Source of the DNA: Planococcus sp. MSAK28401
GTDB taxonomy: Bacteria > Bacillota > Bacilli > Bacillales_A > Planococcaceae
NCBI RefSeq assembly: GCF_018283455.1
Contig: NZ_JAAMTH010000001.1
Coordinates: 867,501 to 931,500 of the forward strand
DNA length: 64,000 nucleotides
Direction: 5' to 3'
Under the pieces are notes generated by a model. It did no database searches, was not told where the DNA came from, and saw only the letters and a program-made list of their open reading frames with translations. A program made the translations under genes and the position numbers. Of the stretch, positions 5,087 to 44,080 are shown piece after piece. Position 1 is the first letter of the stretch; each line of letters begins with the position of its first letter.

Positions 5087-6046
5087 TTATTCCATTATTT
5101 CCGGATACACCGTTTCCGCAACTAACTGCACGGCTTCGCCAATGCGCGGCCCAGGGCGGGAAGTGATGTCGGAATCGATGAAATGCACTTCGCCGTTCTC
5201 GATCGCTTCAACAGCCGACCAGCTGTCGCGTGCTTCGATATCACCAACGGCATCTTCCACATAAGACACGGTTGTTAAAATGACTTCCGGATCGCGGGTG
5301 ATGACTTCTTCTTCAGAGATATTCGGCCAGCCTTCCAGATCATCAAAAACGTTGGTCACTTGGGCGTGGTTCAGAATCTCTTGCTGGAACGTCGATTTTC
5401 CGGTTGTGTAAATTTCAGGGGACGGGCTGATTTCCACGTAGACTTCTTTTTGCTCTTCGACCGCTGCGAGGCGTTCCTGGACATCTTCGATTTGCGTTTG
5501 GATGCCTTCAATCACTTCAGCACCTTTTTCTTCCTTGGCAAGAACAGAGGCGATTTGTTCGATATCGCCGTATACTTCGTCGAATGAAGTAGCCGATTCA
5601 ATAACGAATACCGGAATATCGGCATCTTCAAGCTGGGAAAGGGCAGGTGGCGCTTCGCCGGTTGAATAAGCCAGGACGACATCCGGGTCGAGCTGGATGA
5701 TTTTCTCGGCATTGAATTCAACGGAATCACTGACGCGTTCGATGTCCTGTGCCGCTTCCGGGTAGTTGTCATAGTCAGTTACGCCGACCAATTGATCTCC
5801 GGCATCGAGTGCAAAGACGATCTCGGTGTTGCTCGGGATAAGTGACACGATGGTTTCAGGCGCTTGCTCGAATTCGAGTTCTTCGCCGCGGTCATCGGTG
5901 ACGGTGTACGGTGCGTCGCTTGCAGTTTCAGTTGACGATTCTTCTGTTGTTTCTTCTGTAGCTGGTGCTTCGGCAGTATCATCTTGGCAAGCACCGAGTG
6001 TTAAAGCGAGTGGAATGCTGAGTAAGAGAAATGATTTGATTTTCAC
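5087..6046 (-). CDS. BtuF-like cobalamin-binding lipoprotein of an ABC transporter
   Basis: A 319-residue class III periplasmic-binding-type lipoprotein: signal peptide, lipobox LGAC with Cys20, acidic linker, then the BtuF/FhuD fold (ETIVSLIPSNTEIVFALDAG, IIQLDPDVVLAYS, RPGPRIGEAVQLVAE). It would capture cobalamin or a corrinoid outside the membrane. It starts at a GTG that overlaps the upstream stop by 4 bases (GTGA), so it is translationally coupled, and it lies under a cobalamin riboswitch, which supports B12 as ligand. No permease or ATPase gene follows, so the partner BtuCD must be elsewhere. Confidence 0.88.
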   Translation of the reverse strand: MKIKSFLLLSIPLALTLGACQDDTAEAPATEETTEESSTETASDAPYTVTDDRGEELEFEQAPETIVSLIPSNTEIVFALDAGDQLVGVTDYDNYPEAAQDIERVSDSVEFNAEKIIQLDPDVVLAYSTGEAPPALSQLEDADIPVFVIESATSFDEVYGDIEQIASVLAKEEKGAEVIEGIQTQIEDVQERLAAVEEQKEVYVEISPSPEIYTTGKSTFQQEILNHAQVTNVFDDLEGWPNISEEEVITRDPEVILTTVSYVEDAVGDIEARDSWSAVEAIENGEVHFIDSDITSRPGPRIGEAVQLVAETVYPEIME

Positions 6047-6585
6047 GAGTGAGTCTCCTTTTTCTTCATGCGTTTTGTTGGATAGGATTTGCTGACAAAC
6101 CGGATTTCATCGACGCTGTGCCGTTTATTGGCGTAGACAGCCATCACGAAAAAGACATTTGCGAGCAGGTTGGCATAGTCCATCAAATGCTCCGGTACTT
6201 CGCGCTCAAGCGTTACGTGGTGAAGGGCACGGACGGACTTTTTCGCTTCACTGCGGCATACGTGAAGAATGCATGCACCGTGCGTTCCTTGCGGCAGGAC
6301 GAACTGGTCGATTTCTTCTTTCACTTCCGCCACGTAACGGTCGTACAAGTCACTGAGATCGGCGAGGTCTTGTTCGGTAATGGCGAGTTTCCCGCGCACC
6401 GAGCCGTTCAAGTGATAAACCATCGGCTGCAGGTAACGCAAATCATCGATGATTTGCAGGTTGTCATTGACTGATATGGCTTCGCCGATGCTCGTCGTCA
6501 AGGAATCGGTGCGGATCTCGAAATCGACCGTTGAAGCACTTTCCCTCATGAACGGGTAGCACAAATAGCGCATGTCTTTTTTCAT
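6043..6585 (-). CDS. Cobalamin adenosyltransferase-like protein
   Basis: A 180-residue protein. Residues 95-120 (FVLPQG, then ILHVCRSEAKKSVRAL) match the ATP-binding core of PduO-type ATP:cob(I)alamin adenosyltransferases, which make adenosylcobalamin. The usual N-terminal TGDxG motif is not visible, so it is divergent and activity should not be assumed. ATG 6585 has GGAGGTGAACAG in front; a longer frame would run through the riboswitch terminator and is rejected. It is the first gene after the cobalamin riboswitch and is coupled to the BtuF-like gene. Confidence 0.68.
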   Translation of the reverse strand: MKKDMRYLCYPFMRESASTVDFEIRTDSLTTSIGEAISVNDNLQIIDDLRYLQPMVYHLNGSVRGKLAITEQDLADLSDLYDRYVAEVKEEIDQFVLPQGTHGACILHVCRSEAKKSVRALHHVTLEREVPEHLMDYANLLANVFFVMAVYANKRHSVDEIRFVSKSYPTKRMKKKETHS

Positions 6586-6643
6586 CTGTTCACCTCCAAA
6601 ATAGTGTCCGTAAATATCAGCAGACGTATCGCTTTCAAAAAAG

Positions 6644-6678
6644 AGACAAAAAAAGCCACTCTCAACGAAGAGAGTGGC
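6644..6678 (-). terminator. Riboswitch expression-platform terminator
   Basis: Nine-bp stem (GCCACTCTC/GAGAGTGGC) followed on the minus strand by a T-rich tract, between the cobalamin aptamer and the adenosyltransferase ribosome site. Ligand binding probably promotes this hairpin and stops transcription of the operon. Confidence 0.88.
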
Positions 6679-6768
6679 ACGATTGCGAATATCCAGCACA
6701 AAGCTGTCCATAGGAAAAAGTTGCCGTAGATCCTCTTATCTTCCGAAGAGCAAAAATACGTTCAGAAA

Positions 6769-6925
6769 AAGGTAGGTCTCCTGGCTTGTGCATCGCTTTA
6801 CTCTAAGGCCTTCCCGGGTCTCCCCAGTGGCATCTCTTATTTCATACGCACTTACAGTTGCGGAAACAGCTCCGGATTTTCACCGGATTCCCTGTTACGC
6901 TGACGAATCAGCACCTTTTTCCTGC
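6769..6925 (-). ncRNA. Cobalamin (B12) riboswitch aptamer
   Basis: Read on the minus strand, the segment shows the full conserved cobalamin-riboswitch order: GGTGCTGA, the CAGGGAATCCGGTG core, AATCCGGAGCTG, the B12 box GCCACTGGG, GGGAAGGC, and the closing AAGCCAGGAGACC. It sits about 180 bases upstream of the adenosyltransferase gene, with an intrinsic terminator between. High cobalamin should reduce expression of both downstream genes (family knowledge). Confidence 0.96.
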
Positions 6926-7124
6926 ATGATTATTTACTTAGTTTCAGTGTAGCACTTTTGATTTGAGTTTAGGAGGGCTGGACGAAAATGTTTGGAGCAT
7001 AAGTCGACAGAATAGGGGGAGGGGGATGAAAGTTTTATCAGCTGGGCATAGGGTCTATTTTTTGAGGGTAATTGAACAATAGTAGGAAAGTGAGTGGTAT
7101 TGCAAAACTTCAAGGAGGGGAACT

Positions 7125-7373
7125 ATGGAAAATCACAATGGCCTGACATGTCCATTTTGCCAATCGGAAATGAAAAAAGGATTTATACAGAGTGGCACAA
7201 GACTCGCGTGGGTGCCGAAAGTATCCAAACTGAGTGCTGAACCGAGCCTGACTAAAGGTTCTGTATTGTTATCGGAACAAAGCCGTTTTTCCATTAATCA
7301 TGTCGATGCTTTTCTGTGTGAATCATGCAAGAAGGTCATCATTGATTATGAAAGCAATGAACAAGAACAATAA
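7125..7373 (+). CDS. Small zinc-ribbon protein (DUF6487-like)
   Basis: 82 residues with CPFC near the N-terminus and CESC near the C-terminus, enclosing a hydrophobic/basic core (KGFIQSGTRLAWVPK). This pattern fits a small zinc-ribbon family, probably DUF6487 (PF20097). AAGGAGGGG precedes the ATG. It stands alone and shares a bidirectional terminator with the bacteriocin operon that comes from the other side. Function unknown; zinc binding is inferred from the two CxxC motifs. Confidence 0.75.
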   Translation: MENHNGLTCPFCQSEMKKGFIQSGTRLAWVPKVSKLSAEPSLTKGSVLLSEQSRFSINHVDAFLCESCKKVIIDYESNEQEQ

Positions 7374-7422: not shown

Positions 7423-7455
7423 GAAAAAGAGTAGCGACGTCGCTGCTCTTTTTTG
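7423..7455. terminator. Bidirectional intrinsic terminator
   Basis: Hairpin AAAAAGAGTAGCGAC/GTCGCTGCTCTTTTTT (one mismatch) between the convergent zinc-ribbon and halocin-like genes. Confidence 0.85.
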
Positions 7456-7482: not shown

Positions 7483-8268
7483 TTAATTGCAGATTTGATC
7501 AGTAGCGGCTGTACAGCCAACACTTCCTACAAGCGCACATATCGCAGCAAGTCCGAGACCGCCAAGGCCTGTTGTGATTCCTAAAGCGCCAGCAAGAGCG
7601 TAACACGCCACACCGCCGCCCGTTCCGCAAAGAGCGCCTACTGCATATTCACAAAAAGAAGCATACGCAGTGAATTCGTTGCCATTTTCACTGGCATTTT
7701 GACTAGCGCCTTTGATATTCTTTTCTGCATTGGCCACAAAATCTTCATGGCTTACTTCTAAGCCATCTTGATCCAACAGGCCTCCTTCATTATCGACCGT
7801 TACGTTGTAAACTTCAGTTTGTTTTCCGTCTAGGTTGAAGACTGCCTGGATGTTGATGTTGTCGTCATCCATTTGTTTAGCAAAGAGGGCTTGGTCTGTG
7901 ATGACATCACGGTTTGCCACATCATATGTGAATTGTACGTAAGCCAAGTTTTCGCTTTGTTTAGCAAGTTCATCGAAGATAAATTCGACATATGCGATAT
8001 CGCCTTTAGGACCTGGGACTGTGTTGATGATGATGTTATCAGTGGAGATGGCATTGATTTTACTGATCTTTTTATAAACTTGGTATTCATCCGTTTTTTT
8101 CAAGGTATTTCTGATTTGATTAAATTCCTTTTGACTAACATTTGAGGTCCCTTTTTCAAACATTGGTCCTTCAGCTTGAGCAGCGCCTACAGAACTGAAT
8201 GCTGATGAAACCAAAAGAATGGCCACTGCTACTAACATGAAGACTTTCTCAAACGATTTAATCGACAT
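7483..8268 (-). CDS. Halocin C8-like bacteriocin precursor
   Basis: 261 residues: Sec-type signal peptide (about 1-32), a hydrophilic middle domain (33-200), then a glycine/alanine-rich hydrophobic C-terminal domain (203-261). That domain has six cysteines at 206, 214, 222, 244, 252 and 260, i.e. C-x7-C-x7-C-x21-C-x7-C-x7-C. This matches the halocin C8-like domain. In haloarchaeal halocin C8 the precursor is cut into an N-terminal immunity protein and a C-terminal cysteine-rich antimicrobial peptide; length and layout here are the same. Disulfides, cleavage near residue 203 and N-terminal immunity are inferred. A 32-residue membrane peptide is encoded 14 bp upstream; no dedicated ABC exporter is nearby. 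SdpC-like toxins were considered but fit less well. Confidence 0.75.
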   Translation of the reverse strand: MSIKSFEKVFMLVAVAILLVSSAFSSVGAAQAEGPMFEKGTSNVSQKEFNQIRNTLKKTDEYQVYKKISKINAISTDNIIINTVPGPKGDIAYVEFIFDELAKQSENLAYVQFTYDVANRDVITDQALFAKQMDDDNINIQAVFNLDGKQTEVYNVTVDNEGGLLDQDGLEVSHEDFVANAEKNIKGASQNASENGNEFTAYASFCEYAVGALCGTGGGVACYALAGALGITTGLGGLGLAAICALVGSVGCTAATDQICN

Positions 8269-8282
8269 AGTTAACCTGCCTC

Positions 8283-8381
8283 CTAATTTTTTCTCTTTTG
8301 TGATATAAGCATGAAAGAAACAACCAAGGCGAAAATAAACAGAAACAACACAATGCCTAATTCCAAATTCGTGTCAAACAT
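8283..8381 (-). CDS. 32-residue single-pass membrane peptide in bacteriocin operon
   Basis: Starts MFDTNLELGIVLF, continues as one hydrophobic helix, and ends with a basic SQKRKN tail, so the C-terminus is probably cytoplasmic. AAGGAGGGG precedes the ATG, and the stop codon overlaps the ribosome site (TAGGAGG) of the halocin-like gene 14 bp downstream, so the pair is surely one transcript. It could be an accessory for immunity or secretion (inference); I recognise no family. Confidence 0.75.
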   Translation of the reverse strand: MFDTNLELGIVLFLFIFALVVSFMLISQKRKN

Positions 8382-8567
8382 GTGCCTCCCCTCCTTCTCA
8401 AATGTGTCTTTACTATAATTTCCAATTATTTAACTTTTAAACTTATTTTTTGAAAATTAAAAATAATTATAAAAAAATAAATAGCCATAAAGCATTCCGA
8501 ATGAGAACGTGCTTCCCTTTTTCTTGCCCACATTATTGATAAGGGGCAGCAGAAGCGGTCTGTCATT

Positions 8568-43817: not shown

Positions 43818-44080
43818 TAGAGATGGAGCGGAAAGGGGCGAATGGATGGCGAGGGGGAGCCGAGTCCATTCATTTGCGACGCATCTGCGTAGCAGATGTG
43901 GGAGCAACGCTTTTTTTGATGCTCGAACACAGGGAGGAATCGGCACCGTAGACCGAGTGTCAGTGATCGAAGCGGTTGAAGTCGGCCCCGGGCAGCTGAA
44001 AGCGCGACGTCCTGTCGCATCAGCTGCATGACTCGCATCCTGCGAGCCTCAAGCGTCCCCTTGAAGCGCAATCTTCATCC
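43818..44080. repeat. Dispersed structured intergenic repeat, copy 2
   Basis: GC-rich non-coding block in the same large gap. It shares GAATGGATGGCGA-like sequence and CATTCATTTGCGACGC with the element at 32851-33053, then has GCATCTGCGTAGCAGATG (hairpin) and GCAGGATGCGAG/CTCGCATCCTGC-type symmetry. ORFs here on both strands lack ribosome sites. Confidence 0.55.

What the first reader, a model, noticed from the sequence alone, without database searches (positions are those of the whole stretch)
7483..8381. Halocin C8-like bacteriocin operon with symmetric cysteine spacing
The sequence shows a secreted precursor whose last ~58 residues carry six cysteines spaced 8-8-22-8-8, in a Gly/Ala-rich hydrophobic segment, plus a 32-residue membrane peptide whose stop overlaps the precursor's ribosome site. 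The plan equals that of archaeal halocin C8 (N-terminal immunity, C-terminal peptide). A bacterial example with a dedicated membrane microprotein and no exporter could be a new antimicrobial system.
Basis: partly seen in the sequence, partly recalled or inferred. Interest (0 to 1): 0.78.

Follow-up and report, generated by a model that had tools for sequence, protein, structure and literature searches.

The report
Bacteriocin precursor with membrane-microprotein partner
A Planococcus bacterium carries a secreted protein that probably releases a small antibacterial peptide of a kind first known from salt-loving archaea, paired with a tiny 32-residue membrane protein that relatives often keep after the toxin gene has decayed or gone, which suggests that the tiny protein is a shield against the toxin.

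Summary
Window 7483-8268(-) encodes a 261-aa secreted precursor whose last 57 residues hold six cysteines spaced 8-8-22-8-8; a 32-aa one-TM ORF (8283-8381) lies 14 nt upstream. The precursor belongs to a curated NCBI family, NF040679 'halocin C8 precursor-like protein' (371 bits, cut-off 200), and its end passes the halocin C8 domain model. So the toxin is not new.

The microprotein is the new part; Pfam, NCBIfam and PHROGs hold no family for it. All 7 full-length open precursor genes found have it, upstream in Planococcus (3), downstream in Staphylococcus (4). In Staphylococcus it stays open at 5 of 6 loci with a broken toxin gene and 5 of 6 with none nearby, under purifying selection. Four Planococcus copies stand alone. 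This looks like immunity kept without the toxin.

Against a simple reading: 11 of 19 genomes of another genus have a related microprotein where no toxin was seen. Immunity, cleavage and killing are inferred; a protective role of the pro-region is untested.

The parts
8283..8381 (-). 32-aa single-TM microprotein (MFDTNLELGIVLFLFIFALVVSFMLISQKRKN), proposed immunity peptide
   Evidence: AAGGAGG at 8390-8396; no Pfam, NCBIfam or PHROGs family
7483..8268 (-). 261-aa halocin C8-like precursor
   Evidence: NF040679 371 bits and TIGR04449 33 bits, both over cut-off
8173..8268 (-). Sec-type signal peptide, residues 1-32 (AxA before E33), no twin arginine
   Evidence: read from the sequence; helix 3-22 in the weak model; no signal-peptide program was available
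7657..8172 (-). pro-region, residues 33-204
   Evidence: 106 of 169 aligned residues identical in the paralogue, 45 of 154 in S. argensis; model of low confidence
7486..7656 (-). presumed mature peptide, residues 205-261, about 5.24 kDa reduced, six cysteines, hydrophobic
   Evidence: 51 of 56 residues (from the first Cys) identical in the paralogue, 37 of 56 in S. argensis, mass computed; four-helix model, mean pLDDT 79.6; the exact cleavage point is a guess
8279..8285 (-). UAGGAGG ribosome site of the precursor, overlapping the microprotein stop 8283-8285 (translational coupling inferred)
8412..8441 (-). weak promoter-like site (TTTAAA - 18 nt - TATAGT)
   Evidence: 4 such sites found, 3.5 expected by chance; the block TAATTGGAAAT here is shared by the three Planococcus copies
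7424..7455 (.). palindrome with A- and T-runs, probable bidirectional terminator between the two convergent genes
   Evidence: read from the sequence, letters checked; the scan did not report it

Best explanation
A two-gene bacteriocin unit. The precursor is exported by the general Sec route, so no dedicated exporter is needed. An extracellular or wall protease (not seen next to the genes) frees the last ~57 residues, which fold into a compact four-helix peptide held by three disulfides and damage the membrane of related bacteria. The 32-aa microprotein sits in the producer's membrane with a short outside N-terminus and a lysine-rich inside C-terminus, and blocks the peptide in the plane of the membrane (self-immunity). 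Because it protects on its own, relatives that lost the toxin often keep it as orphan immunity. Shown: family membership, gene pairing, conservation, retention without toxin. Inferred: cleavage, disulfides, killing, immunity, topology.
For: Precursor: NF040679 371 bits (cut-off 200), TIGR04449 domain over cut-off; TIGR04449 also rings in Haloferax volcanii among 14 control genomes. Mature part more conserved than the pro-region: non-synonymous change 0.08 versus 0.214 at synonymous change 0.70 and 0.73. Pairing: 7 of 7 full-length open precursors have the microprotein on the same strand, 14 nt upstream in 3 Planococcus copies, 14-18 nt downstream in 4 Staphylococcus copies. Homology of the two forms: the best ungapped score is reached by 1 of 5000 shuffles. 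Retention, 16 examined Staphylococcus loci of the 25 rows: toxin gene open 4, microprotein open 4 of 4; toxin gene broken 6, microprotein open 5 of 6; no toxin within 1.5 kb 6, microprotein open 5 of 6. pN/pS over 22 codons: 0.07 beside broken toxins, 0.18 for orphans, 0.12 beside intact ones. A further lone copy in G367. Four lone Planococcus copies, all open.
Against: In Planococcus citreus and Planococcus sp. A6 only the last 26 toxin residues remain and no microprotein was found. Two of the 12 Staphylococcus microprotein genes without a working toxin gene are broken too. The short or broken precursors of Ornithinibacillus and Lysinibacillus have no recognisable microprotein. In genus g34 11 of 19 genomes have a related microprotein, in repeated positions beside lemA/htpX-like or degV-like genes, with no toxin nearby, so the family may have another ancestral job. 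The selection figures rest on 22 codons and on pairs that are not independent. The broken toxin genes in several loci may be too recently broken for retention to say much. No experiment shows killing or immunity.
Confidence: 0.55

Rival explanations
1. As in halocin C8, the pro-region of the precursor is the immunity domain; the microprotein has an accessory role such as membrane insertion, folding or release of the precursor.
For: The overall plan (signal, ~170-residue pro-region, C-terminal peptide) resembles halocin C8, where the other part of the precursor is the immune peptide HalI (PMC11509114, passages). The best-predicted part of the weak model is around a helix pair at 46-57 and 60-69 at the start of the pro-region; [quoted passage not shown]
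Against: The microprotein is kept and selected where the precursor is broken or absent, which an accessory factor would not need. The pro-region changes about 2.7 times faster than the mature part at non-synonymous sites. The model is weak (mean pLDDT 55).
Confidence: 0.2
2. The microprotein is a general small membrane protein (for example an envelope-stress or protease helper) and was only captured beside the bacteriocin gene.
For: Related microproteins in 11 of 19 genomes of genus g34; of the ten fetched, six lie beside lemA/htpX-like and four beside degV-like genes, with no toxin nearby. Lone copies in Planococcus and Staphylococcus.
Against: Two opposite gene orders both put it within 14-18 nt of every intact precursor found (7 of 7). 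It is not a core gene in the window's family: of 261 genomes only 5 have a match better than E = 1e-10.
Confidence: 0.17
3. The microprotein is itself an antibacterial or self-toxic peptide: a second component of a two-peptide bacteriocin, or a type I toxin-antitoxin toxin.
For: Small, hydrophobic and cationic like such peptides; stands alone in places.
Against: No secretion signal apart from the TM segment itself, a ribosome site of the precursor that overlaps its stop in Planococcus, no match over cut-off in Pfam or NCBIfam. Antisense RNA was not looked for beyond Rfam, which found nothing at this place at gathering scores.
Confidence: 0.06

Closest known systems
NCBIfam NF040679 'halocin C8 precursor-like protein'
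   Same: Full-length match, residues 3-261, 371 bits against a cut-off of 200; the S. argensis relative scores 416 bits. This is the same family.
   Different: The model covers the precursor only; the microprotein partner has no match over cut-off in NCBIfam or Pfam and none at E 0.05 or better in PHROGs.
Archaeal halocin C8 (ProC8 -> HalI + HalC8)
   Same: One precursor gene with export signal, long second part and a hydrophobic peptide (PMC11509114, passages); the halocin C8 domain model TIGR04449 matches the window protein and an archaeal genome.
   Different: Archaeal precursor 283 aa, mature 76 aa, Tat export (PMC11509114, passages); here 261 aa, about 57 aa, no twin arginine. HalC8 has ten cysteines (recalled), here six. 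No microprotein partner is mentioned in the passages I saw.
NCBIfam TIGR04450 'putative immunity/bacteriocin fusion bifunctional protein'
   Same: Similar plan in Gram-positive bacteria, by its name and description.
   Different: 10.8 bits against a cut-off of 27: not a member.
Orphan immunity genes of bacteriocin and T7SS systems
   Same: Immunity genes kept without their toxin (general knowledge); a T7SS immunity paper was seen in a search listing only.
   Different: A 25-35 aa one-TM peptide would be unusually small (recalled); its immunity role is not shown.

Membership tests
NF040679 halocin C8 precursor-like protein | Whole-protein score over the curated cut-off of 200 bits | tested here: met
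   371.2 bits, E 2.2e-111
Halocin C8 domain (TIGR04449) | C-terminal domain over the cut-off of 24 bits | tested here: met
   33.3 bits in the whole protein, 37.9 bits for the last 62 residues alone
Halocin C8 (archaeal type) | Tat (twin-arginine) export signal | tested here: not met
   No RR in the first 32 residues; Tat export of ProC8 from PMC11509114
Halocin C8 (archaeal type) | Mature peptide of 76 aa with ten cysteines (cysteine number recalled) | tested here: not met
   Six cysteines in about 57 residues
Halocin C8 (archaeal type) | N-terminal part of the precursor confers immunity | not testable with these tools
Halocin C8 (archaeal type) | Proteolytic release of an active antimicrobial peptide | not testable with these tools
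   Needs culture fluid and mass spectrometry
TIGR04450 Gpos_C8_like | Whole-protein score over the cut-off of 27 bits | tested here: not met
   10.8 bits
Immunity peptide (role of the microprotein) | Next to every intact toxin gene found | tested here: met
   7 of 7 full-length open precursors
Immunity peptide (role of the microprotein) | Kept when the toxin is broken or absent | tested here: met
   Open at 10 of 12 such Staphylococcus loci; not kept in the two Planococcus remnants
Immunity peptide (role of the microprotein) | Protects a sensitive cell | not testable with these tools
   Needs an expression and killing assay

The most novel reading that the evidence does not exclude
A new family of 25-35 aa single-TM microproteins gives self-immunity to halocin C8-type three-disulfide bacteriocins. 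It changes sides relative to the toxin gene, persists as orphan immunity in toxin-free strains and species, and in Planococcus sits on a ~500-660-bp segment found in different places. It would be among the smallest immunity proteins known, and would mean that bacterial halocins moved immunity out of the precursor into a separate membrane peptide.
Probability: 0.42. Interest if true: 0.68.

Novelty: new variant of a known kind. Interest (0 to 1): 0.5.

Why it matters
Halocin C8 is the best-described case of one gene that makes both a toxin and its antidote. If the bacterial branch uses a separate, tiny membrane peptide instead, it gives a simple system for how a one-helix peptide blocks a membrane-active bacteriocin. 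It also makes the role of the pro-region directly testable, and points to a group of small genes absent from the family libraries searched here. The presumed mature peptide is well conserved between genera (37 of 56 residues between Planococcus and S. argensis), which suggests a conserved target.

Tried and rejected
Phage or plasmid carriage: no match to either the window protein or the S. argensis precursor in 'phages' or 'plasmids' at E 1e-5. The first scan of viral contigs found nothing; the second, with an alignment, gave one relative on an IMG/VR contig, L035.

Exporter or protease next door: of eight neighbouring ORFs scanned against NCBIfam none looks like one; farther genes of the window were not scanned.

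Fold: the full-length model is poor (mean pLDDT 55); Foldseek gave no match at E 0.001 or better. TipC2 chains, an immunity protein (recalled), appear at ranks 2, 6 and 7 with probability 0.44 or less, which I do not use. No solved structure by sequence (best E 0.18). The mature-domain model is fair (79.6) but Foldseek found nothing.

A possible precursor in G170 (22.9 bits, under the cut-off) was looked at only in the ORF list.

Pfam hits of the microprotein to TCR_zetazeta (E 2e-4 to 2e-3, under the cut-off) were taken as chance similarity of TM helices.

Dropped before counting: of 25 rows I used the 16 strongest (E 6.6e-12 or better) and left out nine weak ones (E 6e-5 to 9.5e-4); that search scored at most 10 candidates a genome, so its counts are lower bounds. 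In one search I used only the 7 of 56 rows with E under 1e-10 (5 genomes; three rows beside toxins, four alone). Of the other 49 rows 20 lie in open frames longer than 100 aa; one (G059, E 1.3e-4) was fetched and has a stop inside; the rest were not looked at.

Literature, open-licence papers only: 19 papers hold 'halocin C8' (listing). None holds TIGR04449. NF040679, TIGR04450, 'bacteriocin fusion bifunctional', 'halocin C8-like' and 'halocin-like bacteriocin' gave one paper, on a haloarchaeon (listing). 'halocin' with 'Planococcus' gave four papers, all reviews by their titles (listing). A search for small immunity peptides gave none.

Full report
What is there. On the minus strand of the window a 32-aa ORF (8283-8381) is followed after 14 nt by a 261-aa ORF (7483-8268). 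The precursor has a Sec-type signal (residues 1-32, read by eye), a pro-region (33-204) and a C-terminal segment of about 57 residues with all six cysteines of the protein, spaced 8-8-22-8-8. Random placement gives a palindromic spacing in 0.26% of draws. The stop of the small ORF lies inside the precursor's UAGGAGG, and the small ORF has a strong ribosome site of its own. A palindrome at 7424-7455 between the precursor and the convergent gene 7125-7373(+) looks like a terminator for both. The promoter-like sites found are weak and no more than chance gives.

What family. The precursor is a full-length member of NCBIfam NF040679, 'halocin C8 precursor-like protein' (371 bits, cut-off 200), and its end passes TIGR04449, the halocin C8 domain, at 33 to 38 bits against 24. 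TIGR04449 also rings in the archaeon Haloferax volcanii, the only one of 14 control genomes. From PMC11509114 (passages only): ProC8 has 283 aa, is exported by Tat and yields HalI and the 76-aa halocin. The window protein has no twin arginine and a shorter peptide with six cysteines.

Who has it. NF040679 rings in 4 of 46 genomes of the genus, 2 over the cut-off, and in 5 of 261 of the family, 2 over the cut-off. The own genome has a second unit, 70% identical. G019 has a near-identical copy. P. citreus and Planococcus sp. A6 keep only the last 26 residues, in P. citreus between the same two neighbours as in the window. Outside the genus: Staphylococcus (9 of 84 genomes with a match; S. argensis and S. 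intermedius by name), Ornithinibacillus bavariensis and Lysinibacillus xylanilyticus (broken or short), and one IMG/VR contig. TIGR04449 rings in 5 of 398 genomes drawn from the class. Searches of phage and plasmid records found none. The distribution is sparse, with much decay.

The microprotein. In the paralogue and in G019 the 32-aa ORF is in the same place with its ribosome site. In Staphylococcus a 25-aa peptide, for example MTTFVIIFLFVYSIVITLMYFNKKK, follows the precursor. The two forms share the FLF core and a basic tail (alignment A3); 1 of 5000 composition-keeping shuffles reaches the observed score. The 7 full-length open precursors found all have the peptide within 14-18 nt on the same strand. 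It has no match over cut-off in Pfam or NCBIfam and none worth the name in PHROGs.

Retention without toxin. A DNA search with the Staphylococcus peptide gene over 84 genomes gave 25 rows in 20 genomes. I examined the 16 strong ones. Toxin gene open at 4 (G321 second copy, G638, G387, G639): peptide open at 4. Toxin gene broken at 6 (G321 first copy, G603, G645, G307, G640, G667): peptide open at 5, broken in G667. No toxin within 1.5 kb by tblastn at 6 (G628, G477, G629, G620, G645 second, G307 second): peptide open at 5, broken in the G307 second copy. In the 14 open ones, over 22 codons, pN/pS is 0.15 over all pairs, 0.07 among those beside broken toxins and 0.18 among orphans; pairs are not independent, and several toxin genes may have broken only recently. 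The DNA search misses some: a profile search found another lone copy in G367. In Planococcus a profile search of 261 family genomes found, besides the three beside toxins, four lone copies at E below 1e-10 (own genome contig C9, G002, G020, G039), all open, with no toxin in the fetched 12-14 kb; G002, G020 and G039 have no NF040679 match at all. These four lie on a shared segment of about 500-660 bp, 95-98% identical, in different surroundings, although G020 and G039 share one flank.

The wider family. In a sample of 388 genomes of the class, 22 match at E 0.001, in 4 genera. In the unnamed genus g34, 11 of 19 genomes have a relative. Ten of these loci were fetched: six lie beside lemA/htpX-like genes and four beside a degV-like gene (these gene names are my reading of the sequences), and none has a toxin nearby. 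TIGR04449 rang in no g34 genome in the class sample of 398; judging by handle numbers, 18 of the 19 were in that sample. So either orphan immunity became common there, or the peptide has an older job and was recruited as immunity.

How it most likely works. Mature part conserved, pro-region variable: window versus paralogue, non-synonymous change 0.08 in the mature part and 0.214 in the pro-region, at synonymous change 0.70 and 0.73. The mature part is predicted as four short helices, consistent with a disulfide-held hydrophobic bundle (5.24 kDa reduced, GRAVY 1.2). I infer export by Sec, cleavage just before the first cysteine by a protease that is not among the eight neighbouring ORFs scanned, membrane damage in related bacteria, and in-membrane protection of the producer by the microprotein. 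In haloarchaea release of an antimicrobial part from another secreted precursor by extracellular proteases, even of another strain, has been reported (PMC12893001, abstract and one passage). In Planococcus the gene order would make the shield first; in Staphylococcus it is made second, so order seems not essential.

What would change my mind. If the peptide fails to protect a sensitive strain, the housekeeping rival gains. If only the pro-region protects, the halocin C8 scheme holds and the microprotein is accessory. The bacteriocin call itself rests on family membership and anatomy, not on an assay.

Noticed in passing
window 6754-6933 (-): Cobalamin riboswitch (Rfam RF00174, 119.9 bits) in front of an adenosyltransferase-like ORF (6043-6711) and a BtuF-like binding protein (5087-6046).
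   Followed up: no
window 43991-44046 (+): Bacillaceae-1 RNA (Rfam RF01690, 41.1 bits).
   Followed up: no
L102:6664-7326 (own genome contig C9): The lone microprotein lies on a 500-660-bp segment shared by four Planococcus genomes. Its ends (about 45 and 35 bp) and a 160-bp stretch behind the gene match many scattered places in the genus, so it may be built from or moved by repeats.
   Followed up: partly
L057:1903-2412 (+), Staphylococcus genome G620: Divergent from a lone microprotein lies a 169-aa secreted protein with a Gly-rich C-terminus after an 'ERGW' motif like that before the first cysteine of the staphylococcal precursors, with two cysteines; no Pfam or NCBIfam family over cut-off. 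Possibly a different bacteriocin; an assembly gap lies between them.
   Followed up: partly
L024, L031, L035: Three staphylococcal-type precursor genes are open except that the reading frame breaks in the signal-peptide region in each: repeated inactivation at the same part.
   Followed up: no
L011/L032 (Lysinibacillus xylanilyticus): The six-cysteine domain follows a short N-terminal piece right behind a response-regulator gene that looks truncated; two small ORFs of 75 and 66 aa follow, the second with a weak hit to a bacteriocin-like WGxF model.
   Followed up: partly
L113, L115-L119 (genus g34): A relative of the microprotein sits beside lemA- and htpX-like genes in six genomes (gene names by eye), which hints at an envelope-stress context.
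   Followed up: partly
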